From positions 1 through 21,979 of the IMG/VR virus record IMGVR_UViG_3300027907_000059: a stretch of 21,979 nt of DNA. The stretch is one strand, 5' to 3'. The notes under the pieces are model-generated. The model was not told the DNA's origin. It searched no databases and saw only the letters and a list, made by a program, of their open reading frames with translations. This document shows positions 1 to 10,499 of the stretch, piece after piece. How positions within the stretch are numbered: the first letter of the stretch is position 1; every line of letters begins with the position of its first letter. Origin of the DNA: a virus. The position numbers and the translations under genes are program-made.

Positions 1-287
1 ACCTCGTCAACGAGTGGGACCATCGCTTGCTTCTCTGGGAGGAGGACAGGACAAGGTTCGGTTACGACATCTCTCCAGACATGGATGCCTATGGTGTCCC
101 TATCGATGCTGACGATATGGAACCTGGGATCGGTGTCGTGCGTGTCCCGTTCAACCCAACAGCGGAGAATATGGCGTTCGATCTTGCACACCGGATCGTC
201 CTAGGGTTCGATCTTGACTGGTGTGAGTGCCGTCTGTGGGAAACCCCGAAGGCCTATGCGGAGGCGAGGTTCTCAAGTGCACGATAA
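1..287 (+). CDS. queD: QueD, 6-carboxy-5,6,7,8-tetrahydropterin synthase (C-terminal part, 5' truncated)
   Basis: The reading frame is open from base 3 at the window edge to the TAA at 285-287, so the N-terminus lies outside the window. The visible part carries the QueD signatures: Asp-His of the D-H-R-L-L motif (codons at 18-23; in QueD this Asp-His pair helps catalysis), the conserved PTAEN motif (residues P44-N48 counted from the TTG at 27), and the Glu of ETP (codon at 240-242) near the C-terminus. QueD converts dihydroneopterin triphosphate to 6-carboxytetrahydropterin, the second step from GTP towards preQ0. It is followed immediately by queE (10-nt overlap), and folE and queC are next, so pathway context supports the call. 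An internal TTG at 27 could be taken for a start, but the frame continues upstream with the D-H-R motif, so it is not one. Confidence 0.88.
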   Translation, partial: LVNEWDHRLLLWEEDRTRFGYDISPDMDAYGVPIDADDMEPGIGVVRVPFNPTAENMAFDLAHRIVLGFDLDWCECRLWETPKAYAEARFSSAR

Positions 288-1044
288 ACGGTTCCGAGTT
301 GCTGAGGTCTTCGGGCCTACGATTCAGGGTGAAGGTCGGCACATAGGTACCCCATGCTATTTCATCCGCTTCGCAGGCTGCGACTACAGATGTCGCTGGT
401 GTGACTCACCTCACGCAGTGCTCACTGAGTACGTCAACGAGGTCCCGCGCATCTCCGCTATGGAAACGTGGGGGAAGTTGAAGGCGCTTCCACGTGGGCC
501 TCGGTGGGTTGTCTTTTCTGGAGGTAACCCAGCACTGTTCGACCTCAAAGATCTCTGTGCACTGATCCTTGGTGACGGCTACAACCTCATGGTTGAGACC
601 CAGGGGACTGTGTACAACGATTGGTTGCGGAGTGCAGATGAGATCTGCGTGTCACCGAAGCCTCCCTCTTCTGGCAATATGACGACGGAAGGCGTCCTGA
701 GAGAGTTTCTCCGTGAGTTGTGGGGATCCTCGCTTGGCAACCCTCTCAACCAGACGTACCTGAAGGTTGTCGTCTTTGACAACGAGGACTACGCTTACGC
801 ACGGTCGATTCACAAGACCTTCGAGAACCTTCAGATGTTCATCTCTGTTGGTAACGAAGATCCCTCTCTCCCCACTGTGGGGAACCCAAATCCGAAACCA
901 GGCACGCTTCCTTTGACACGCGACATTGTTCTCGACAAGATGAGGTGGTTGATGGAGAAGGTAGCTAATGACGTGACTATGCGGAACGTCCGCGTGACTC
1001 CGCAGATGCACGTCCTCGCATGGGGGAATGAACGTGGACGTTGA
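277..1044 (+). CDS. queE: QueE, 7-carboxy-7-deazaguanine synthase (radical SAM)
   Basis: A 255-aa radical SAM enzyme that rearranges 6-carboxytetrahydropterin into 7-carboxy-7-deazaguanine (CDG). The start chosen is GTG 277, preceded by a purine-rich GAGGCGAGG at 261-269; the frame is open further upstream but that part overlaps queD deeply. Seen in the sequence: an N-terminal F-G-P-T-I-Q-G-E-G segment (residues 12-20), the [4Fe-4S] cluster motif C35-x3-C39-x2-C42, and S-G-G-N-P-A-L (residues 81-87), the SAM-contacting motif in the QueE form. Length is close to that of the family. The gene overlaps queD by about 10 nt and folE by about 17 nt, so it is probably co-translated with them. Confidence 0.93.
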   Translation: MHDKRFRVAEVFGPTIQGEGRHIGTPCYFIRFAGCDYRCRWCDSPHAVLTEYVNEVPRISAMETWGKLKALPRGPRWVVFSGGNPALFDLKDLCALILGDGYNLMVETQGTVYNDWLRSADEICVSPKPPSSGNMTTEGVLREFLRELWGSSLGNPLNQTYLKVVVFDNEDYAYARSIHKTFENLQMFISVGNEDPSLPTVGNPNPKPGTLPLTRDIVLDKMRWLMEKVANDVTMRNVRVTPQMHVLAWGNERGR

Positions 1045-1627
1045 CTACGTAGCCATGCAAGGTGAAACAATTGCTAACGCGGCACGCAACATGATCCTTG
1101 CTGTTGGCGAAGATCCAGAGAGGGAAGGTCTGCGCAAGACGCCTCAGAGGGTAGCTCACTCCATGTTTGAGCTGTGCCGCGGGTACACAGAGGACATTCG
1201 GCATGAGATCGCAGTGTTCGACGCCGAAGGTGCTGACCAGATGGTCTGCCAGTGGAACATTCCTCTCTACTCCCTATGTGAGCACCACATGCTCCCATTC
1301 GTCGGGTACGCACATATCGGGTACATTCCGAAGGAGCACGTCCTCGGTCTCTCGAAGTTGAAGAGGATCACAGATCACTTCGCACGACGTCTGCAGATTC
1401 AAGAGCGCCTCACTCGTGAAATCGTTGACTACGTTGACGGGTCTGTGCATCCTCGAGGTGCAATCGTCTGCGTAGAGGCAGAGCATCTCTGTATGACGAT
1501 GAGGGGTGTACAGGCACCAGGTACGCGCACAACCACAGAGGCAATCACAGGAGTGTTCGCTGACCCTGCAGAGGGGTCGAAGGAAGAGTTCCTCACGCTC
1601 CTCTCAATGCAAAGGAGGCCCCATTGA
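1028..1627 (+). CDS. folE: FolE, GTP cyclohydrolase I
   Basis: Catalyses GTP to 7,8-dihydroneopterin triphosphate, the entry step for both folate and 7-deazaguanine synthesis; here the neighbours show it feeds QueD. The 199-aa product has the family motifs: E-G-L-R-K-T-P-x-R-V (residues 33-42), the zinc and active-site segment C84-E-H86-H87, G-L-S-K (residues 107-110), and the second zinc cysteine C155 in H-L-C-M, followed by R-G-V-x-x-P-G-T-x-T-x-T. ATG 1028 sits right against a G-run (1022-1026), too close for normal spacing. GTG 1034, two codons later and in frame, is better spaced from the same purine run and is a realistic alternative start. The gene overlaps queE upstream and queC downstream. 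Confidence 0.95.
   Translation: MNVDVDYVAMQGETIANAARNMILAVGEDPEREGLRKTPQRVAHSMFELCRGYTEDIRHEIAVFDAEGADQMVCQWNIPLYSLCEHHMLPFVGYAHIGYIPKEHVLGLSKLKRITDHFARRLQIQERLTREIVDYVDGSVHPRGAIVCVEAEHLCMTMRGVQAPGTRTTTEAITGVFADPAEGSKEEFLTLLSMQRRPH
1613..1618 (+). promoter_or_regulatory. Ribosome binding site for queC
   Basis: A full AGGAGG at 1613-1618, inside the 3' end of folE and 5 nt before TTG 1624. It decides the TTG start of queC, because the product then begins directly with the PP-loop strand (MKSLVLLSGG). Confidence 0.8.
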
Positions 1628-2295
1628 AGTCACTAGTCCTACTGTCTGGTGGCATGGACAGTGCAGCATTACTGTCTCTTGCGATCAACCAGAGTGATGA
1701 GGTATCTGCTGTCTCGTTTGACTACGGGCAGAGGCACAGGAAAGAACTGCATGCTGCACAAGATCTCGTTGACTACTACGAGGTCCCCTGGAGAATTCTG
1801 ACTGTCGCAATTCCGAAGGGTGGGGTTCTGCTGACAGACATGGCAATGCCTCAGATGACTTACGAGGAACTCCAGAAAGAGGAAGGCCCCTCACCCACCT
1901 ACGTCCCATTCCGGAATGGCACGTTCCTCTCCCTCGCTGCAGCACTTGCCCTGACTGTCAACAGTGAGTACCTCTACACAGCGGTTCATGCAGACGATGG
2001 GCACAACTGGGCCTACCCAGATTGCACTCCTGAGTTCATCGGTGGGATGCAGACAGCGATCTATGTCGGCACGTACCACAAGGTGCGCCTTCTCGCGCCG
2101 TTCGTGTACTCAACGAAAGCGCAGATCGCACGTTCAGGTCACGAGATGGGCACACCGTTTAACCTCACGTGGTCATGCTATGAGGGGCGTGAGTACCACT
2201 GTGGCGTGTGCCCAACGTGTGTCTCTCGAATCGAGGCATTTAAGATCGCTGGTATCGACGATCCGACAATCTACGAGCAGAGGGAGAAGGTATGA
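1624..2295 (+). CDS. queC: QueC, 7-cyano-7-deazaguanine (preQ0) synthase
   Basis: A 223-aa ATP-dependent ligase that converts CDG plus ammonia to preQ0. It starts at TTG 1624, overlapping the folE stop by 4 nt, with a perfect AGGAGG upstream. Seen: the N-terminal PP-loop S-G-G-M-D-S (residues 8-13), F-D-Y-G-Q-R-H (residues 32-38), and the C-terminal zinc site C185-x7-C193-x2-C196-x2-C199, all standard for QueC. There is no fused amidotransferase (Gat) domain as found in phages that make archaeosine-type bases, so the end product should be preQ0. The stop overlaps the next start as ATGA at 2292-2295. Confidence 0.95.
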   Translation: MKSLVLLSGGMDSAALLSLAINQSDEVSAVSFDYGQRHRKELHAAQDLVDYYEVPWRILTVAIPKGGVLLTDMAMPQMTYEELQKEEGPSPTYVPFRNGTFLSLAAALALTVNSEYLYTAVHADDGHNWAYPDCTPEFIGGMQTAIYVGTYHKVRLLAPFVYSTKAQIARSGHEMGTPFNLTWSCYEGREYHCGVCPTCVSRIEAFKIAGIDDPTIYEQREKV

Positions 2296-2579
2296 ACCAC
2301 GATGGAGGAATTGTTCTGCCTGGGCCTGAGGGTTTGCCCAGGGCTCCAATGCCTGTGCAGAAAACAGAGCACGTAACGACATTCAACCAGGCGAGCATTG
2401 GCCTTGTCGCGGTGACAGACGACGACAACATCGTCCGGGGGTACCAGGTGCAGATCAAAGACGTGATCGAGAACCATGTCTACGTCTTCCCGATCACCCG
2501 TGTACACGTGAAGGACGAGATCAGAGAGATGTTCAACCAAGTTCCTGACATTGGGTTCCCGGTGCTGAGGGATGCCTGA
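2292..2579 (+). CDS. Hypothetical 95-aa protein inside the 7-deazaguanine cassette
   Basis: Not recognised. It starts at ATG 2292, overlapping the queC stop (ATGA), with a purine-rich GGGAGAAGG upstream, so it is translationally coupled to queC. The first ~20 residues are rich in Gly and Pro and look flexible; the remainder has alternating hydrophobic stretches (around residues 37-42, 50-57 and 62-72) that suggest a small beta-rich fold. No cysteines, membrane segment or recognisable catalytic motif are seen. The tight coupling to queC and its place between queC and dpdA suggest, as inference only, a role linked to base modification or to replication. Confidence 0.7.
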   Translation: MNHDGGIVLPGPEGLPRAPMPVQKTEHVTTFNQASIGLVAVTDDDNIVRGYQVQIKDVIENHVYVFPITRVHVKDEIREMFNQVPDIGFPVLRDA

Positions 2580-2811
2580 CCATGACCCTGTTAATCATCC
2601 GAGACATTACACCTACGGACCCATCGAGGTCATCGACCTCGTCGAGGGATTTGATCTCGGTTACCATGAAGGCAACGCCGTCAAGTATCTCCTTAGGTGG
2701 AGACACAAAGACGGCCTTCAAGATCTGAAGAAAGCGAGGTGGTACCTTGACCGACTCATCGAAGTCCAAGAGCGTGAAGCTGATGAGGCGAAGGGAATTA
2801 CCTCGCACTAA
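2572..2811 (+). CDS. DUF3310 family protein
   Basis: A 79-aa protein matching the common phage DUF3310 pattern (also annotated SaV-like or putative nucleotide kinase, without solid biochemical proof that I can cite). Seen: N-H-P-x-H-Y near residues 8-13, I-E-V-I-D (residues 18-22), then G-N-A-V-K-Y-L-L-R-W-R-H-K-x-G and D-L-K-K-A-x-W-Y-L-D-R-L-I. It starts at ATG 2572, overlapping the preceding gene by 8 nt. DUF3310 genes are frequent in phage early or replication regions, which fits here. The function should be treated as unknown. Confidence 0.85.
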   Translation: MPDHDPVNHPRHYTYGPIEVIDLVEGFDLGYHEGNAVKYLLRWRHKDGLQDLKKARWYLDRLIEVQEREADEAKGITSH

Positions 2812-3502
2812 CTCCGTTGGTCACGCGGACAGTGTGGAGAAGATCCTCGGGCAGATCTCGATGCTCTCACCCGACAACGTGTACTACCAGGCAGGACGTC
2901 GGAAGGAACGTCTCCTGGGAGCAGACGTCGAGCGTGTCGTTCTGTCACCTACGATCTTTCGTAAGTTCGTGTGCGTTGCAGGCTGCACCGCGTGCTGCCA
3001 GAAGTTCACTCTCGACTACATCCCGTCAGAGGTACTCAACCTCGACATCTCAATGGAGGGTTTTGACACAAGAGATGTCCGGGTGAATGGAAAGGAGAGG
3101 CAGGTCTGGACCAATGACCAGAATCAAAATCCTCTATGTGACTTTCTCACTGCTATTCGCCCGGATGGCGGATTGGGTTGCGCACGTTGGCCACATCCTC
3201 CACTTGCCTGCATTTCAGCACCGCAGTTGCAGTTCATCCAAATGCGTCCGGGGACGACCTACATCCTCAAGAAGCCATTTGGACGTGCCTGGGCGATGAA
3301 GCCCACACCTCAGTGTGAGTTTCTCGATGTAGATCTCACTGAGGTTGACCTGCAGACGAACTTGGCGATCCTTGACAGGTTCGATGCGTGGGCAAAATAC
3401 TTCAAGATCAAGACGTGTATTCCTCAGGTACGAAAGGAGATCGGCAAGGTGCTACGCGAGGGGCAAATTCCTGTAGCGGGGATTGAGGTATGGCGTAGAT
3501 GA
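2783..3502 (+). CDS. Cysteine-cluster protein, YkgJ-like (putative metal or Fe-S binding)
   Basis: From ATG 2783 the product is 239 aa; TTG 2747 and GTG 2834 are in-frame alternatives and none has a strong ribosome binding site, so the start is uncertain. The key feature is a cysteine cluster C64-x3-C68-x2-C71-C72, followed by C119-D-F-L, C133-A-R-W and P-x-x-C143 (numbered from ATG 2783). This order resembles the YkgJ/UPF0153 family (putative zinc- or iron-chelating domain, PF03692). Further cysteines occur at about 178 and 212. The gene overlaps DUF3310 at its 5' end and dpdA at its 3' end (ATGA, 3499-3502). Its place directly before dpdA makes a part in modifying or inserting the deazaguanine base possible, but this is inference. 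The domain call itself is moderate. Confidence 0.6.
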   Translation: MRRRELPRTNSVGHADSVEKILGQISMLSPDNVYYQAGRRKERLLGADVERVVLSPTIFRKFVCVAGCTACCQKFTLDYIPSEVLNLDISMEGFDTRDVRVNGKERQVWTNDQNQNPLCDFLTAIRPDGGLGCARWPHPPLACISAPQLQFIQMRPGTTYILKKPFGRAWAMKPTPQCEFLDVDLTEVDLQTNLAILDRFDAWAKYFKIKTCIPQVRKEIGKVLREGQIPVAGIEVWRR

Positions 3503-4329
3503 AAGCTGCACTGATTCCACCGATACCCTGCCTCAAGCAGTTTGGGGTTACAGGTAAGTTCCATCTACTCCTCTCTCATCTGCTCAAGGACCCCGTGTAC
3601 TTCTCTCACTACCTGACAGAACGTGAGCGCGGCGCGTACCTGCTCCTCGACAACTCAGCGCACGAGCATGGTCACGGGGACGATCCAGAGGCACTGATCT
3701 ACAACGCTGTCGCCCTCAAGGCGCAGGAGGTTGTCGTTCCAGATGTACTTGAGGATGCAGAAGGCACAGTAGAAAGTGCGCTGAACGCACTTGAGTACTG
3801 GTTCGAGAAGAAAGACAAAGTCATCCGAAAACTCAACCCTGCACTGATGTACGTGCCTCAGGCACGACATATGGAGGAGTGGGTTTGGTGCTTCGGTAAC
3901 CTCGTACGGATGCACCAGTACGTGACAGGTAGGGAAGGGTACAGGACGTCGCTCGTAATCGGAGTGTCGAAAGACTACGAGGTCTGGCACGAACAAGGTC
4001 TCATGCCGATCCTTGACTTTCTCTCCCTCATGCGCCAGAACGTCAAGTTCCAGGTGCACCTTCTCGGGTGGGGACGTGATCTGTGGAACCTAGAGATGTA
4101 CGCGAAGGAGCATCCATGGATTCGTTCGACAGACAGCGCCAAGCCTTTTGTCTACGGCCTTGAGAGAATCAAACTTGAGCCTCACGAGGACGTGCCTGAG
4201 TACCCGAAGAGACCCCACGACTATTTCACAAGACGGATGGACGACGAGCAGTTGCAGGTTTCCATATTAAATGCCATGATATTCCGTGCGATGGCATCCG
4301 GATCACTCTCAACAACAGTTCAGGTATGA
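3499..4329 (+). CDS. dpdA: DpdA-like DNA guanine transglycosylase (TGT superfamily)
   Basis: A 276-aa protein whose motif pattern fits phage DpdA, the enzyme that swaps guanine in DNA for a 7-deazaguanine base. Seen: L-L-L-D51-N-S-A-H-E, which matches the position of the first catalytic Asp of tRNA-guanine transglycosylases; V-V-V-P-D82-V-L-E-D with a following Thr; I-G-V-S-K-D-Y-E-x-W (residues 154-163); and H-L-L-G-W-G-R-D (187-194) leading to R-S-T-D212-S-A-K-P-F, where D212 fits the nucleophile position. The CxCxxC zinc site of bacterial tRNA enzymes is absent, as expected for short phage forms. It is coupled to the YkgJ-like gene (ATGA at 3499) and to the next ORF (ATGA at 4326). The upstream preQ0 genes strongly support a DNA rather than a tRNA target. 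Motif equivalences were assigned by eye. Confidence 0.8.
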   Translation: MKAALIPPIPCLKQFGVTGKFHLLLSHLLKDPVYFSHYLTERERGAYLLLDNSAHEHGHGDDPEALIYNAVALKAQEVVVPDVLEDAEGTVESALNALEYWFEKKDKVIRKLNPALMYVPQARHMEEWVWCFGNLVRMHQYVTGREGYRTSLVIGVSKDYEVWHEQGLMPILDFLSLMRQNVKFQVHLLGWGRDLWNLEMYAKEHPWIRSTDSAKPFVYGLERIKLEPHEDVPEYPKRPHDYFTRRMDDEQLQVSILNAMIFRAMASGSLSTTVQV

Positions 4330-4349
4330 CTGAGCAACCCCCCGCACAG
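4326..4349 (+). repeat. Start-codon repeat, copy 1
   Basis: A 24-bp sequence that contains the ATG and encodes MTEQPPAQ, identical to the copy at 4487-4510. Confidence 0.9.
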
Positions 4350-4490
4350 CCCAAGACCATCGAAGAATGGCAACGGCTCGTTAGAGAGGAAGAAGTCGCC
4401 CGCCTTGTGCGAATGTGGAAGGCGCTTCCCACTGCGGTCCAGTCGGAGATAATCCGCAACTTCGAGCGCAACGTTGGGTCTGGACGATGA
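4326..4490 (+). CDS. Hypothetical 54-aa protein, first of three with a repeated MTEQPPAQ start
   Basis: A short ORF starting at ATG 4326, overlapping the dpdA stop (ATGA) and ending at TGA 4488-4490. It begins with MTEQPPAQ, encoded by a 24-bp sequence that recurs at the starts of the next two ORFs. The rest is charged and probably helical (about residues 11-50), with an E-E-W-Q-R-L-V-R-E-E-E segment. No known family is recognised. The overlaps at both ends and the shared leader argue that it is a real translated gene despite its size. Confidence 0.65.
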   Translation: MTEQPPAQPKTIEEWQRLVREEEVARLVRMWKALPTAVQSEIIRNFERNVGSGR

Positions 4491-4510
4491 CTGAGCAACC
4501 CCCCGCACAG
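4487..4510 (+). repeat. Start-codon repeat, copy 2
   Basis: Identical to copy 1 over 24 bp; the match with copy 3 extends 5 bp further (AGCGA), to 4515. Confidence 0.9.
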
Positions 4511-4702
4511 AGCGACCCTGAGTTTGAGCGCGCACTACTGCGAGCGGACATCTGCGCCGGCAACACTGAGGCAGCCCAGATGCAGTACGAGAGGGTGCGA
4601 CGAATGGTGGCGCTATGTCCCGAGTGCAGCAGCGAAGGTGAGCCGGGTTCGATCTGCCAGCACCCAGAACCGATCGGTGACCGCTACCGAGTGATCCTAT
4701 GA
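4487..4702 (+). CDS. Hypothetical 71-aa protein, possible zinc-binding, second MTEQPPAQ start
   Basis: Starts at ATG 4487, overlapping the previous stop as ATGA, and ends at 4702, overlapping the next start in the same way. The leader MTEQPPAQS is encoded by the same 24 bp as at 4326. Residues 11-43 look helical; then follow C44-P-E-C47 and C57-Q-H59, which could form a small zinc site (inference). In-frame start codons further upstream exist, but the repeat-defined ATG with the 4-nt overlap is far more convincing. No family is recognised. Confidence 0.65.
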   Translation: MTEQPPAQSDPEFERALLRADICAGNTEAAQMQYERVRRMVALCPECSSEGEPGSICQHPEPIGDRYRVIL

Positions 4703-4722
4703 CCGAGCAACCCCCCGCACAG
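4699..4722 (+). repeat. Start-codon repeat, copy 3
   Basis: Same 24 bp with one silent T-to-C change in the second codon (ACT to ACC). Partial relatives without a start codon lie at 4787-4799 (CCGCACAGAGCGA) and around 5121-5141. Confidence 0.9.
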
Positions 4723-5634
4723 AGCGAGCGCTGGATTCAGGGCAAGCGCGGCTTGCAGCGTGAAACGTATGAGACGCCGCAGGATTCCGCACAGAGCGAC
4801 TACAACGACCCGACCCACGCTGGCCGTAGGGCTGGCGAGTTTGATAGCACCGAGAACGAGGCGTGCGAACACAACCCCGGCTGCGAGCACCGCAACACAG
4901 CTACGATTCAGAGCACCGAGAACGAGGCCACGAATCTTGGGGGAGGCCCTGGGATCACCGACGGATCGGATGAGGCGACGGCCTCTGAACGGCTGCGCGG
5001 AACGGCAGTCCCGGCCCCATCCTCCCCCGAGCGCGACAGCACCGAGAACGAGGCGCTAAAAGAAGCGATGAAGGCTGACTCGACCACGGTGGAGCAGGAC
5101 AACCTCATCGCCAAACACTCCAAACCCCCCGCAAAGAGCGAGCGCCCGTACATCAACGAGGACGGAGATACCGTGATTCCGCCTGGTTGGAAGGAAGTGC
5201 CAGACGCGGCTGGAAGCACCGAAGGTGTCGAGAACGAGGCGCGGAGGCTGGCGGAAATCGAAACGGCGTATCGACAATACGGCTGGCCCGGAGCAGAGCG
5301 AGAAATCCGCGCCGCCCTCTCCGACACCGAGGCCAAGCTGGAGGCCGTGCGTGCGGCAGAGCCGACCGTCGGCGGCATGATCGAAGAGATAGAGCGCCTT
5401 GAAGGGGTAGCGGAAGCGTTGCGCAAGAAGGCGAACGAGAACCGCATCGAGGCTGACAATGCGGCCCGCGACTACGAAGATCTTGAGGGCGTCGTCCATT
5501 GGGCGCTCGCGCAGATGAGGAAGAACGGCGCTCGCCTCCCGGCAGAAGAAGTGCTCGCGGCGCTTGTCGAGTCCGTGGAGGGTGCAGGCCCGCGAGCCGC
5601 CCTCACCCGCTCTAACGACGAGGAGGCGGAGTGA
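4699..5634 (+). CDS. Hypothetical 311-aa repeat-containing protein with coiled-coil C-terminal half
   Basis: Starts at ATG 4699 (ATGA overlap with the previous ORF) with the third copy of the MTEQPPAQ leader, here with one silent change. Residues 1-170 are polar and probably disordered. They hold three exact S-T-E-N-E-A copies (residues 50-55, 72-77, 114-119), a degenerate fourth, S-T-E-G-V-E-N-E-A (173-181), and an inner P-P-A-K-S-E copy (143-148) echoing the leader. A C56-x-H58-x3-C62-x-H64 cluster follows the first copy. Residues about 180-265 are heptad-like and charged, likely coiled coil. GC content is visibly higher than in the flanking genes. No known family is recognised. The location before the polymerase suggests an accessory early gene. 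The repeat structure could reflect fusion of several small ORFs or a repeat-driven expansion. Confidence 0.7.
   Translation: MTEQPPAQSERWIQGKRGLQRETYETPQDSAQSDYNDPTHAGRRAGEFDSTENEACEHNPGCEHRNTATIQSTENEATNLGGGPGITDGSDEATASERLRGTAVPAPSSPERDSTENEALKEAMKADSTTVEQDNLIAKHSKPPAKSERPYINEDGDTVIPPGWKEVPDAAGSTEGVENEARRLAEIETAYRQYGWPGAEREIRAALSDTEAKLEAVRAAEPTVGGMIEEIERLEGVAEALRKKANENRIEADNAARDYEDLEGVVHWALAQMRKNGARLPAEEVLAALVESVEGAGPRAALTRSNDEEAE
4846..5241 (+). repeat. Dispersed in-frame STENEA-coding repeats (4 copies)
   Basis: The 17-bp unit AGCACCGAGAACGAGGC occurs at 4846-4862, 4912-4928 and 5038-5054, with a copy split by an insertion at 5215-5240. Spacing is irregular but always a multiple of three. 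The DNA copies are identical at third codon positions, which points to recent duplication rather than protein-level convergence. Confidence 0.85.
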
Positions 5635-5740: not shown

Positions 5741-8404
5741 TTGGCTATCCTCGTCGTCTGGGATACTCCACCCTCTCACGGGACGAAGTACAGAGATGTC
5801 TTTGAGTCGATCCTGGACGCGTTCCAGATCGATTATGAACACACTTGGCTCTTTGAGAGAGGAATCGATCCGAAGAAGGTGAAGGCAAGTGACTACCTCC
5901 CCGCAGGGCAAGAGATCAACGAACTGTCACAGGACTTCGACAAGGTACTTTGCCTTGGTGCTCTCCCTTCTGCTGCCGTTCACCAGTCGGAGCATACTCT
6001 CCCGGTCACTCGTATCCGAGGTAGAGGATTTATAAGTCCGGCTGGGAAGTACACTGTTACGACTTACAACCCGTCGATAGTCGTTAAGGACACGGATTTC
6101 TTCCGTGATCTCGTTTTCGACATCCGGAAGTTCCTCGACAACGATGCACCGATGGAGCAACCTGAGATTGAGATCGAGGCTGTCGAGTACAAGAAGGACC
6201 TGAAGGCTCTGCGTGACCTGCATGAGGCCTCCTACGTAGCGTGCGACATTGAGACGACGTCTCTCAACCCGTACGATGCTGAGATCCTCTCTATCGCGTT
6301 CGCGTGTGAAACGACAGACGGTGGAGGATACTGCCTCGCAGTGCCTCAGCACCTAGTTGGAGAGGAAGTGCACAAGTTCCTCCGCACGTACAAAGGAACA
6401 CTCGTCTTCCACAACGCCCTCTTCGACATTCAGTTCCTGTGGAAGAAGTTCGGACGATTCGAGATCCCGCACCTCGCGGACACGATGCTCATGCACTGGG
6501 CACTCGATGAGCGTCCGTTCAACCGTTACCGCTCACACGGTCTCGACCTCCTACAGCGTCTCTACTTCGATGCACCCCCGAAGGCACTCTCGATGAAAGA
6601 TTGGCTCGATGAATACTTCCGTGAGGACGTCGGTGACGAGGCACGCTGGGAATGGGTCACTAAGTTCTGTGAGGAACACACAGAGATGGCACGTACAGCG
6701 TGGCGTGAGTGGCATATCGAGGTGTACGACGAGGAGGCAGACTGGCGTGGCAAGAAGGTGCTCAGGGACATCTCGATTGAGACTGTGTACGAGGCTGTCT
6801 GCGCGAAGAAGATGCCGAAGAAGATGCTCCCTCCCCCTGACAAGGCCCGCAAAGAAGAGATGTGGGATCAGATGATGACCTACATGGCTGAGGATGCACT
6901 CAACACGGTGCGCCTCTTCCCTGTGCTCAAGGCAGAGATGGACGAGGAGTCAGAGCGTCTGTGGAACCTGCACGAGAACTATCTGATCCCAGCGACGAAG
7001 GCGCTCGCCCAGATGCGACTGAATGGCGCGCCTGTCGATCTCCCGTACCTGATGAAACTGAAGACGGAGATCGAGACGCAGTTGGAAGAAGAGATGCAGA
7101 TCCTGCGTTCACTCGTTCAGGAGCACACAGCGCACCCGAAGGGGGAGGAGTTCAACCCGAACTCACCGAAGCAGGTTGAGGAGGTTCTCTACTCAAAGGA
7201 GATCGGTCTCGGTCTGCAGATGCCGAAAGGCGTCGGTCGCTACGCGTACAAGCGTGACGAAGAGAAACTGACGACGAACTCAGACACGTTGAAGGTCCTC
7301 GCACGCCAGGTTGCGAAGAAGCGCCCAGCAATCTCCAAACTCATCAACCTCATTCTGACGTACAGAGTGAAGTCGAAAATCATAGGCACGTACATCGACG
7401 GAATCCTAGAAAGGGTGGACCCAGATGGCAGGATACGAGGAGACACGAACCTCCATGGTACGGCCACAGGGCGTACATCGTCGTCGAATCCGAATCTTCA
7501 GAACATCCCGGATGCGAGTCACGTTGGTTTTGACATCCGAAAGGCATACATTCCCTCTGAAGGGTGGGTTATCCTCGAAGCGGATTATTCGCAGCTGGAA
7601 CTGCGAGTTGCAGGTCTCTTCTCACAAGATTCCGTCCTTCTCGAGGCTTACAGAAACGGCGCAGACATCCATCAGGAGGTTGCTGAACTCCTCTGGAACA
7701 AACCGAAGAAGGAGATAACGAAGTACGAGCGATATCTCGCCAAGTGCATGAACTTCGGAGTCCTGTACGGACGCGGGGCGCGTTCGATTGCAACAGGTCC
7801 GGAGATGGACAACCTTGTCGAGATGTCTGGGAGGTCATGGAACAATGCAGAGATTGACGCTTACTTCGACAAGTTCAAAGTTGGGTACAAAGCACTCTTC
7901 GACTGGATGGCCCTTGTCAAGAAGGACTCGATGGCGAAGCAGTACGTTGAGGGGCCGTACGGTAACAGACGCAGGTTTGATCTCATCCTTGAGTCGGAGA
8001 GAGGGCACATCGAGCGGCAGACAGTCAACTCACCGATTCAAGGCTTTGCTGCCCAGATTGCTGTGAACGCGATCATTGAGTTGGACAGGGTGTTCGACGT
8101 TGACAGACAGCGGATTCTCTCGACGGTTCACGACTCGATCCTGTGCGAGTGCGTCAACGATCAAGAGACAATCCGTGAGACAGCACACCTCATTAAGACG
8201 ACGATGGAAGAGAAGTTGCCGATAGAGGTGTTCGTGACCCTGCCAACGCTGCCTCAGGCACCGTTCAAGGAAGGCGACCGGCTAACTTACAATCTACCGT
8301 TCGTTGCAGACGTGGTCATCGGACCGAACTGGGGAGAGGCCCATGAGGAGGTCGAGCACCTTCCTGCAGTCCCGGAAGAAAACGCAATACCGCGTCTCGC
8401 TTGA
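5741..8404 (+). CDS. DNA polymerase family A with N-terminal UDG-like domain and 3'-5' exonuclease
   Basis: An 887-aa replicative-type phage polymerase. Residues about 1-132 resemble a uracil-DNA glycosylase-like fold (V-L-C-L-G-A at 69-74, R-I-R-G-R-G at 91-96, T-T-Y-N-P-S at 107-112), but the Fe-S cysteines of family 4 UDGs are not seen, so it is probably not an active Fe-S UDG. The exonuclease follows with D169-I-E171 (Exo I), N225-x3-D229 (Exo II) and Y381-x3-D385 (Exo III), so proofreading should be intact. The polymerase domain has T-G-R-T-S-S-x-x-P-N-L-Q-N-I-P (576-590), motif A D615-Y-S-Q-L-E-L-R, motif B from K668 to Y676-G, and motif C V-H797-D798-S799. Motif C usually reads HDE; the Ser replaces the second acidic residue. 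TTG start with a strong ribosome binding site. Confidence 0.95.
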   Translation: MAILVVWDTPPSHGTKYRDVFESILDAFQIDYEHTWLFERGIDPKKVKASDYLPAGQEINELSQDFDKVLCLGALPSAAVHQSEHTLPVTRIRGRGFISPAGKYTVTTYNPSIVVKDTDFFRDLVFDIRKFLDNDAPMEQPEIEIEAVEYKKDLKALRDLHEASYVACDIETTSLNPYDAEILSIAFACETTDGGGYCLAVPQHLVGEEVHKFLRTYKGTLVFHNALFDIQFLWKKFGRFEIPHLADTMLMHWALDERPFNRYRSHGLDLLQRLYFDAPPKALSMKDWLDEYFREDVGDEARWEWVTKFCEEHTEMARTAWREWHIEVYDEEADWRGKKVLRDISIETVYEAVCAKKMPKKMLPPPDKARKEEMWDQMMTYMAEDALNTVRLFPVLKAEMDEESERLWNLHENYLIPATKALAQMRLNGAPVDLPYLMKLKTEIETQLEEEMQILRSLVQEHTAHPKGEEFNPNSPKQVEEVLYSKEIGLGLQMPKGVGRYAYKRDEEKLTTNSDTLKVLARQVAKKRPAISKLINLILTYRVKSKIIGTYIDGILERVDPDGRIRGDTNLHGTATGRTSSSNPNLQNIPDASHVGFDIRKAYIPSEGWVILEADYSQLELRVAGLFSQDSVLLEAYRNGADIHQEVAELLWNKPKKEITKYERYLAKCMNFGVLYGRGARSIATGPEMDNLVEMSGRSWNNAEIDAYFDKFKVGYKALFDWMALVKKDSMAKQYVEGPYGNRRRFDLILESERGHIERQTVNSPIQGFAAQIAVNAIIELDRVFDVDRQRILSTVHDSILCECVNDQETIRETAHLIKTTMEEKLPIEVFVTLPTLPQAPFKEGDRLTYNLPFVADVVIGPNWGEAHEEVEHLPAVPEENAIPRLA

Positions 8405-9004: not shown

Positions 9005-9730
9005 CTACTTACGTACCGGCTTGAAAGACACAGGTCCACGAGCAAACGTCGCATCGTGAGAATCTGACCAGTTTGCCGGATTGTTGACCTTGTTGTGGAT
9101 CTCCTTGAGGTCCGTCCTTCGCAGATACGTGACGATGAAGAAGTCGGGCTTGGTCAGTCTCTCCTTCTCGTGTGCCACCATCTTGCGGAAGTGGTCTGCG
9201 GACGGTTCGGGAGCAGTACCGTGCAGGTTAGTCGCCACGTCGATCTTACGTGACGGTGCCCACTCATGGTGCTGAACACACTGACCTGCAGGAATGTCTC
9301 CCTTGCGGAAAAGGGCTGCGAAGCCTCGTGCTGCCATCAGCACTAGACGATCTGGTAGAGGGTGCAACCCATCGTGTTCGATCTCCATTCCGTAGGCAGT
9401 CGAGTTGCCGGTCATACCCTTGATTGAGCCTCCGTCTGGCAGACCTGCGTGGTTCGCGGGTCCAGCGGCAATCACATAGAAGACGCCGTTGAACCCGAGG
9501 AGCACGTTACACAGTGGCCCAGGGAGATCTTCTCTTCCTTCGATGCAGACCTTCAGTGATGGTGCAGGCGTGTCCTTCGACGGATGTCCTGCTGTGTGGT
9601 GCATGACTCCACCTTTTGGGTTGAACGCAGCGAGGCCTGACGAGTTCGAGTTGTTCTTCCACCCGTCGATCTCACGCACGGCAAGACCCGCTCTGCGGAG
9701 CCTTGTAGCGATGCCTGTGTCAGCAGCCAT
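9005..9730 (-). CDS. Endolysin, N-acetylmuramoyl-L-alanine amidase (Amidase_2/PGRP)
   Basis: A 241-aa enzyme cutting the amide bond between MurNAc and the stem peptide of the host wall. Seen: G-G-V-M-H44-H45-T-A-G with the first zinc His, C74-N-V-L-L-G-F-N-G-V-F-Y with the core strands, N-H-A-G (93-96), Y-G-M-E-I-E-H (113-119), and H154-H155-E-W-A-P-x-R-K-x-D164 with the second zinc His and the Asp in the third ligand position. The catalytic domain fills about residues 15-175. The remaining ~65 residues may bind the wall but match nothing I recognise. No signal peptide is seen, so export would depend on a holin. The start overlaps the preceding 44-aa ORF by 11 nt. Confidence 0.93.
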   Translation of the reverse strand: MAADTGIATRLRRAGLAVREIDGWKNNSNSSGLAAFNPKGGVMHHTAGHPSKDTPAPSLKVCIEGREDLPGPLCNVLLGFNGVFYVIAAGPANHAGLPDGGSIKGMTGNSTAYGMEIEHDGLHPLPDRLVLMAARGFAALFRKGDIPAGQCVQHHEWAPSRKIDVATNLHGTAPEPSADHFRKMVAHEKERLTKPDFFIVTYLRRTDLKEIHNKVNNPANWSDSHDATFARGPVSFKPVRK

Positions 9731-9866: not shown

Positions 9867-10499
9867 CTAACAGAACGGTAGAACGTTACAAGGGTTAGGA
9901 CCAGGTGGTCCTTGAGGCCCACGTTCACCTTGTGGTCCTCGTTCCCCTTGCAGGCCCTGTGGGCCCCTCTCTCCTTGCGGACCTGCAGGCCCAGCTGGAC
10001 CTTGAGGCCCACGCTTCCCCCTAGGTCCACGAGGTCCCCGAGCACCCTCTTGAACTGCGGGAAGATCTGTTGTGAGGTCAAGATTACGCAGGTTAACTGT
10101 CTCTACAAACGTCTCGCAGTTAAGGGGCCTTAGCCTCCGTACAAGTTCTTCTTTCTGCTCTATTCCCTGGCGTATCTCTTGTCTTGTTAGCCCAGGAATC
10201 TGCCTCCCTGACTTGAGGAACTTCTTCGACCTCTGAATTGTCTCAATAGCATCCGCGCGAAGGACTGCGTAACCTGTATTCTGCCGGATGCAGAGTGTCT
10301 TCAAGATCTCACGTTCATTGAGTGCCCTCACTCGCGTCTCTGCAGCGAGATTATCCTGAGTGTCGCTGACCTCATTTGCGAGTTCCCACGCCTTAATTGC
10401 TGTCCACGTGCAAAGGAGAGCAATCGCAGCCATCCCAAGAAGGATAACTGTCGCAGCAGTGTTCGACTGGAACACTCTGTGGGGCACTCTACTTCTCAC
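9867..10499 (-). CDS. Membrane-anchored collagen-like repeat protein in the lysis region
   Basis: A 210-aa protein with three parts. There is one N-terminal transmembrane helix (about 14-37) after a short basic segment; then a charged helical region (about 38-150) with Cys 70 and 128; then 17 uninterrupted Gly-X-Y triplets (152-202), rich in G-P-Q, G-E-R and G-P-R, ending in a short tail with two Cys (204, 210). Gly-X-Y arrays usually form collagen-like triple helices, so the protein is probably a trimer with the triplets outside the membrane (inference). Collagen-like repeats are common in phage tail fibres, but this copy has a membrane anchor and lies between holin and endolysin candidates. 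The start is GTG 10499, overlapping the upstream gene by 11 nt; GTG 10487 is an alternative. Confidence 0.8.
9892..10046 (-). repeat. Gly-X-Y (collagen-like) coding repeat
   Basis: Low-complexity 9-bp-type repeats encoding the Gly-X-Y triplets (residues 152-202 of the collagen-like protein). Internal near-identical units such as G-E-R-G-P-Q-G suggest expansion by slippage or unequal recombination. Confidence 0.8.

What the first reader, a model, noticed from the sequence alone, without database searches (positions are those of the whole stretch)
1..4329. Complete preQ0 pathway plus DpdA in one phage operon
queD, queE, folE and queC lie together with a DpdA-like transglycosylase, all on one strand with overlaps. 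Each has its family motifs. This combination in phages is known to produce 7-deazaguanine in DNA, which blocks host restriction enzymes. The DpdA subfamily and the modification level in this phage are not known from sequence.
Basis: partly seen in the sequence, partly recalled or inferred. Interest (0 to 1): 0.75.

Follow-up and report, generated by a model that had tools for sequence, protein, structure and literature searches.

The report
Phage DNA-guanine modification operon (preQ1 type)
This virus carries a gene set that builds a modified guanine and swaps it into its own DNA, probably to escape bacterial restriction enzymes; two overlooked genes indicate an aminomethyl base (preQ1), possibly methylated further, rather than the plain preQ0 first proposed.

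Summary
QueE, FolE and QueC score above their family cut-offs. The 276-aa protein is a divergent DpdA: profile-related to phage DNA-guanine transglycosylases, with tRNA-guanine transglycosylases its best PDB fold matches. queD is cut by the window's left end. An overlapping contig (first 4,947 window bases identical) supplies full queD and, 157 bp outside the window, a queF gene with intact catalytic and NADPH-motif residues. So the pathway does not stop at preQ0; the predicted base is 7-aminomethyl-7-deaza-dG (dPreQ1), as measured in three other queF-bearing viruses. In viruses it occurs with queF (two fragments lack queF, but their near-identical sisters have it), sometimes unlinked; queF also occurs without it. 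FliB, a PF03692-type [4Fe-4S] enzyme, methylates lysine amines, so I propose that this protein N-methylates preQ1. It may be the published DpdM, which I could not check. The kind is known; the final base and the methylase step are inferred.

The parts
3..287 (+). queD, 3' part only (94 of 148 aa); the 5' part lies outside the window, on overlapping contig IMGVR_UViG_3300009094_000229 (L001 4343-4789)
   Evidence: PF01242 over cut-off for the full protein; phrog_2389 QueD-like E 2.4e-8 for the fragment
277..1044 (+). queE, radical-SAM 7-carboxy-7-deazaguanine synthase, 255 aa, GTG start, overlaps queD by 11 nt
   Evidence: TIGR03365 244 bits, over cut-off 206
1028..1627 (+). folE, GTP cyclohydrolase I, 199 aa
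   Evidence: PF01227 215 bits; TIGR00063 201 bits, cut-off 182
1624..2295 (+). queC, 7-cyano-7-deazaguanine (preQ0) synthase, 223 aa
   Evidence: PF06508 193 bits; TIGR00364 169 bits, cut-off 150
2292..2579 (+). 95-aa ORF of unknown function, overlapping both neighbours (4 and 8 nt)
   Evidence: no family match
2572..2811 (+). DUF3310 protein (79 aa), common in phages
   Evidence: PF11753 64.5 bits, cut-off 24
2747..3502 (+).
   Evidence: Eight invariant Cys in 27 relatives; 23 of 27 relatives match PF03692; co-occurs with queF in viruses; lowest dN/dS of the cluster
3499..4329 (+). dpdA-like DNA-guanine transglycosylase, 276 aa; D51, D82, H187, D212 conserved
   Evidence: tblastn to phiST, MA9V-3, immuto and Youna2 proteins; hhalign to the 9g-type DpdA group, probability 91, E 1e-6; best PDB fold hits are TGT
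5741..8404 (+). DNA polymerase A with 3'-5' exonuclease, 887 aa; the usual downstream neighbour of dpdA in relatives
   Evidence: PF00476 267 bits; synteny

Best explanation
The phage makes its own 7-deazaguanine base and swaps it into its DNA. FolE, QueD, QueE and QueC turn GTP into preQ0 (inferred from family membership). QueF, encoded just outside the window, reduces the nitrile of preQ0 to an aminomethyl group, giving preQ1 (inferred from family and intact residues). The divergent DpdA (3499-4329) exchanges guanine in DNA for preQ1 (inferred from profile relationship, fold and synteny). The YkgJ-like cysteine-cluster protein (2747-3502) then modifies the exposed amine, most likely by [4Fe-4S]/SAM-dependent N-methylation as FliB does on lysine, giving 7-(methylamino)methyl-7-deaza-dG (inferred; the least certain step). 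The modified guanines block host restriction enzymes (established for other phages, PMC6884629; not tested here). I put about 0.8 on preQ1 being the inserted base and about 0.5 on the methylation step.
For: QueE, FolE and QueC over cut-offs. An overlapping contig, identical over the first 4,947 window bases, carries queF: PF14489 over cut-off, best PDB match B. subtilis QueF 4f8b, motifs CPITAQPD, ESKSLK and RGG retained, 4-nt overlap with queD. DpdA: profile match to the 9g/Dp-1 group; alternating alpha/beta AlphaFold model with TGT heading the PDB list; 46 viral loci, usually directly before polA. The order queF-queD-queE-folE-queC-(...)-ykgJ-dpdA-polA is conserved in relatives. Among DpdA lineages clustered at 70%: QueF+/YkgJ+ 10, QueF+/YkgJ- 4, QueF-/YkgJ+ 0, QueF-/YkgJ- 9 (Fisher p 0.0016); the pair also co-occurs unlinked in whole phage genomes. 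One lineage shows queF+ykgJ+dpdA with no queC or true folE in 20-36 kb fragments. All seven genes are under purifying selection, YkgJ strongest (dN/dS 0.12). Viruses with queF but no YkgJ-like gene carry mainly dPreQ1: Dp-1 and HVTV-1 and 6E35.1a; gene content. FliB has a PF03692-type motif with eight conserved Cys and methylates amines through [4Fe-4S] and SAM.
Against: No chemistry is known for this virus. The window itself lacks queF; it rests on the identical overlap with a second metagenomic contig. The QueF score is modest (27.8 bits against 27.3 in Pfam; 49 against 86.9 in TIGR03139). The DpdA model is of middling confidence (pLDDT 67.5) and its PDB matches are weak (best E 0.009, TM about 0.4, other TIM barrels interspersed). 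The YkgJ-FliB link is a shared cysteine pattern and Pfam family only; no fold match was found. At 50% clustering few lineages remain and the association is not significant (p 0.11). Two bacterial genomes carry a YkgJ-like gene without a detectable DpdA: an Acidobacteriota MAG that also has no queF over cut-off, and Roseicella aerolata, so the family may have other uses.
Confidence: 0.6

Rival explanations
1. One reading: the operon stops at preQ0 and DpdA inserts preQ0 (dPreQ0), as in phages CAjan and Rosebush.
For: FolE, QueD, QueE, QueC and DpdA are all present in or at the window; phages with just these carry dPreQ0.
Against: queF overlaps queD by 4 nt on the overlapping contig and is under purifying selection (dN/dS 0.29). 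Measured viruses with queF carry mainly dPreQ1.
Confidence: 0.1
2. The QueF homologue is an archaeal-type amidotransferase (QueF-like), so the base is archaeosine (dG+).
For: PMC6884629 states that QueF and QueF-L are hard to separate by sequence.
Against: The ESKSLK motif, by established knowledge the NADPH-binding motif missing in QueF-L, is present; the best PDB matches are bacterial NADPH-dependent QueF; Dp-1, predicted to have a QueF-L, proved to carry dPreQ1.
Confidence: 0.06
3. The YkgJ-like protein is not a methylase but an iron-sulfur electron carrier, metal chaperone or other accessory of the preQ1 branch, or acts outside it; the final base is plain dPreQ1.
For: Eight invariant Cys fit any Fe-S or metal role; no fold match to a methyltransferase; similarity to FliB is remote; a few bacterial genomes have the gene without a detectable DpdA.
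Against: QueF and DNA insertion work without it in Dp-1, HVTV-1 and 6E35.1a, so it is not a required cofactor; a tailoring step after QueF explains why, in viruses, it occurs with queF.
Confidence: 0.27
4. The genes feed preQ1 to host tRNA (queuosine) rather than to phage DNA.
For: QueF and preQ1 are also queuosine intermediates.
Against: The DpdA has no counterpart of the C-terminal CxCxxC zinc motif of tRNA TGT (compare the E. coli sequence with the protein); no queA or queG gene was identified; the gene sits directly before polA in relatives.
Confidence: 0.04

Closest known systems
7-deazaguanine phages of Hutinet 2019 (PMC6884629): CAjan, Rosebush, 9g, Dp-1
   Same: FolE, QueD, QueE, QueC plus DpdA in one cluster; Dp-1 also has QueF and carries dPreQ1
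   Different: The DpdA here belongs to a different group, related to 9g DpdA only at profile level; an extra YkgJ-like gene is present
Cellulophaga phage phi38:2 group, Mycobacterium phage Knocker, Pseudanabaena phage Pan1
   Same: queF, a YkgJ-like gene and a TGT/DpdA gene side by side with queC, queD and folE
   Different: Their DpdA belongs to the 9g/Dp-1 type, not to the group in this window
Cellulophaga phage phiST, Chryseobacterium phage MA9V-3, Flavobacterium phage immuto, Weizmannia phage Youna2
   Same: Closest relatives of this DpdA in named phages (24-26% identity), near que genes; Youna2 also has polA directly downstream
   Different: No YkgJ-like gene; no true queF except in immuto (the Youna2 match lies on folE)
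FliB flagellin lysine methyltransferase (PMC8598068)
   Same: PF03692-type cysteine cluster, eight conserved Cys, acts on a primary amine
   Different: Acts on protein; CX4CX3CC instead of CX3CX2CC; direct homology not tested
DpdM, dPreQ1 methyltransferase (Cui et al. 2023, doi 10.1093/nar/gkad657; recalled, paper not held)
   Same: Recalled as a validated methylase of dPreQ1 with an unusual fold, which is the role proposed for the YkgJ-like gene
   Different: Whether the sequences are the same could not be checked here

Membership tests
preQ0 biosynthesis pathway (FolE, QueD, QueE, QueC) | All four enzymes present and intact | tested here: met
   Three complete in the window; full QueD on the identical overlapping contig
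QueF (NADPH-dependent preQ0 reductase) | QueF domain with catalytic Cys/Asp and the ESKSxK motif | tested here: met
   PF14489 27.8 bits, cut-off 27.3; CPITAQPD, ESKSLK, RGG. The TIGR03139 equivalog cut-off is not reached (49 of 86.9)
DpdA (DNA-guanine transglycosylase) | TGT-like fold | tested here: inconclusive
   TGT entries head the Foldseek PDB list (probability up to 0.98), but E 0.009 and TM about 0.4 from a model of pLDDT 67.5
DpdA (DNA-guanine transglycosylase) | Homology to an experimentally established DpdA | tested here: met
   Profile-profile match to the 9g-containing group, probability 91, E 1e-6; H187 and D212 correspond to 9g H196 and D215
DpdA (DNA-guanine transglycosylase) | Exchanges guanine in DNA for a 7-deazaguanine | not testable with these tools
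   Needs biochemistry or mass spectrometry
DpdA2 (nt-1 type) | Sequence similarity to nt-1 DpdA2 | tested here: not met
   hhalign to the single nt-1 protein gives no credible match; only one nt-1-type sequence was used
DpdA3 and DpdA4 | Sequence similarity to these subfamilies | not tested
   Defining paper not held; no reference sequences compared
PF03692 / FliB-type [4Fe-4S] amine methyltransferases | Cysteine cluster matching PF03692 | tested here: met
   23 of 27 family members match at E up to 0.1, best 9.8e-8; the window protein itself is weak (E 0.037, below cut-off)
PF03692 / FliB-type [4Fe-4S] amine methyltransferases | [4Fe-4S] cluster and SAM-dependent N-methylation | not testable with these tools
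   Only the eight invariant Cys are seen

The most novel reading that the evidence does not exclude
The YkgJ-like gene is an undescribed family of Fe-S tailoring enzymes acting on preQ1 in DNA, found across unrelated phages and sometimes unlinked from the que cluster, and the DpdA here founds a further DpdA subfamily that works together with it.
Probability: 0.25. Interest if true: 0.65.

Novelty: new member of a known kind. Interest (0 to 1): 0.42.

Why it matters
It corrects the predicted base (preQ1 type, not preQ0) and points to a specific gene for the next step. That gene is the most constrained of the cluster, accompanies queF in unrelated phages, and offers a ready test: Vibrio phages 6E35.1a (queF only, dPreQ1 measured) and D484 (queF-queC region 99% identical, plus the YkgJ-like gene) are close relatives. 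The DpdA group also shows how divergent these transglycosylases are: standard family models miss it, so such clusters are under-annotated.

Tried and rejected
Single-sequence searches for the DpdA gave no Pfam, NCBIfam or PDB hit; the established 9g DpdA also hits no TGT model in Pfam, so this was not taken as evidence against. Sequence alignment to E. coli TGT gave no credible score, nor did it for the 9g-type group, so it is uninformative. Alignment A1 was too divergent for a collection scan; a closer alignment worked. The YkgJ-like model against PDB gave no match. The weak DpoZ (aminoadenine polymerase) hit of PolA, 114 bits against a cut-off of 500, was rejected. PF14489 hits in 9g and Youna2, and the sub-cut-off hits in several contigs, lie on folE and were discounted. 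folE hits in the three-gene lineage lie on its queF. Cui et al. 2023 and the 2024 review on 7-deazaguanines are not held.
Full report
What was checked. The window is a 21,979-base virus record, apparently a fragment. Reading frames on the + strand give queD (3-287, truncated), queE (277-1044), folE (1028-1627), queC (1624-2295), a 95-aa ORF, a DUF3310 gene, a PF03692-like gene (2747-3502), the 276-aa gene (3499-4329), small repeat-bearing ORFs and DNA polymerase A (5741-8404). Neighbouring genes from queD to dpdA overlap, which suggests one transcript (inference). QueE, FolE and QueC exceed curated cut-offs. The opposite strand carries tail, head and lysis genes.

What lies just outside. A search with the DpdA protein found contig IMGVR_UViG_3300009094_000229, identical to the first 4,947 window bases. 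It extends to the left and carries full queD (148 aa; PF01242 over cut-off) and, overlapping queD by 4 nt, a gene for a 141-aa QueF (L012 7903-8328; window base 1 is L012 8485). It passes the PF14489 cut-off (27.8 against 27.3 bits), scores 49 bits on TIGR03139 (cut-off 86.9), and its best solved relatives are bacterial QueF. The catalytic CPxTxQPD stretch, the ESKSLK motif and RGG are intact here and in nearly all related QueF proteins examined. The first difference between the two contigs falls in the repeat-rich ORF after dpdA.

The DpdA. In named phages its relatives are proteins of phiST, MA9V-3, immuto and Youna2, near que genes; the immuto protein is annotated DNA guanine transglycosylase. 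An alignment of 12 such proteins matches a 19-member group containing the 9g and Dp-1 DpdA (probability 91, E 1e-6); nt-1 DpdA2 is not detected. D51, D82, H187 and D212 are invariant in the group, and H187 and D212 correspond to H196 and D215 of 9g. The AlphaFold model is an alternating alpha/beta chain of moderate confidence, and TGT structures head the PDB list, weakly; the closest viral model is that of phiST. Forty-six viral loci were found, nearly all with que genes and usually before polA.

The overlooked gene. The protein before DpdA has a CxxxCxxCC cluster. Related proteins sit beside queF and a TGT gene in Pan1, Knocker and phi38:2. A scan gave 34 viral loci, most in que clusters with queF. 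Eight cysteines are invariant in 27 sequences and in the Vibrio versions; 23 of 27 match PF03692. Of eleven records searched whole, nine have queF over cut-off, some of them far from the YkgJ-like gene. The other two are fragments of 27.6 and 4.4 kb whose hits lie on folE; their sisters with 91% and 100% identical YkgJ-like proteins have queF. In a sample chosen by DpdA instead, all 12 contigs with the gene have queF by my profile, while queF also occurs without it. At 70% clustering the counts are 10 with both, 4 with queF only, 0 with the YkgJ-like gene only and 9 with neither (p 0.0016); at 50% they are 2, 1, 0, 5 (p 0.11). Related sequences are not independent, so the p-values are indicative. 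One lineage shows only queF, this gene and dpdA in fragments of 20-36 kb, as if it drew preQ0 from the host. Bacterial genomes give exceptions: an Acidobacteriota MAG with neither queF over cut-off nor a detectable DpdA, and Roseicella aerolata with queF but no detectable DpdA. These were not pursued.

How it probably works. FolE, QueD, QueE and QueC make preQ0, QueF reduces it to preQ1, and DpdA puts preQ1 into DNA. Measured cases support this: Dp-1 and HVTV-1 carry mainly dPreQ1, and Vibrio phage 6E35.1a carries a 295-Da nucleoside consistent with dPreQ1 at 15% of dG; all three have queF and none has the YkgJ-like gene. The YkgJ-like protein therefore probably acts after QueF and is not needed for insertion. 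FliB, with a PF03692-type motif and eight conserved cysteines, uses [4Fe-4S] and SAM to methylate lysine amines; preQ1 offers a similar primary amine. N-methylation of preQ1 is the best guess. From memory, Cui et al. 2023 described a dPreQ1 methyltransferase, DpdM; the paper is not held and the identity is unverified.

A natural test pair. Vibrio phages D480, D481, D484, D486, D491s and D527 carry the YkgJ-like gene about 20 kb from queF; 6E35.1a, 99% identical over the queF-queC region, does not.

Selection. Against the nearest relative (L018) all seven genes show dN/dS of 0.12 to 0.30; the YkgJ-like gene is lowest.

Verdict. A known kind of phage DNA-modification operon with a corrected end product, a remote DpdA group, and a tailoring gene supported by co-occurrence but not by biochemistry.

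Noticed in passing
window 4326-4354, 4487-4515, 4699-4727: A 29-nt direct repeat (ATGACTGAGCAACCCCCCGCACAG...) forms the start of three consecutive ORFs after dpdA, each beginning MTEQPPAQ; window and overlapping contig first differ just downstream, at window base 4948.
   Followed up: partly
window 9867-10499 (-): Collagen-like Gly-X-Y protein resembling phage tail fibre proteins.
   Followed up: no
window 9005-9730 (-): Endolysin-like protein (phrog_880, E 8e-27).
   Followed up: no
L079, L080, L082, L088: A lineage with queF, YkgJ-like gene and dpdA but no queC or true folE in the fragments, suggesting use of host preQ0.
   Followed up: partly
L044 1038-1979 and 2335-3063: Two DpdA-type genes flank queF in one contig.
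   Followed up: no
L054 2925-3548 and L055 8001-8633: YkgJ-like genes with the same cysteine pattern in an Acidobacteriota MAG and in Roseicella aerolata, with no que genes within the flanks and no detectable DpdA in the genome.
   Followed up: partly
L051 2992-3930 (Vibrio phage D484) versus L104 (Vibrio phage 6E35.1a): Close Vibrio phages share queF-queC at 99% DNA identity but differ in whether they carry the YkgJ-like gene.
   Followed up: yes
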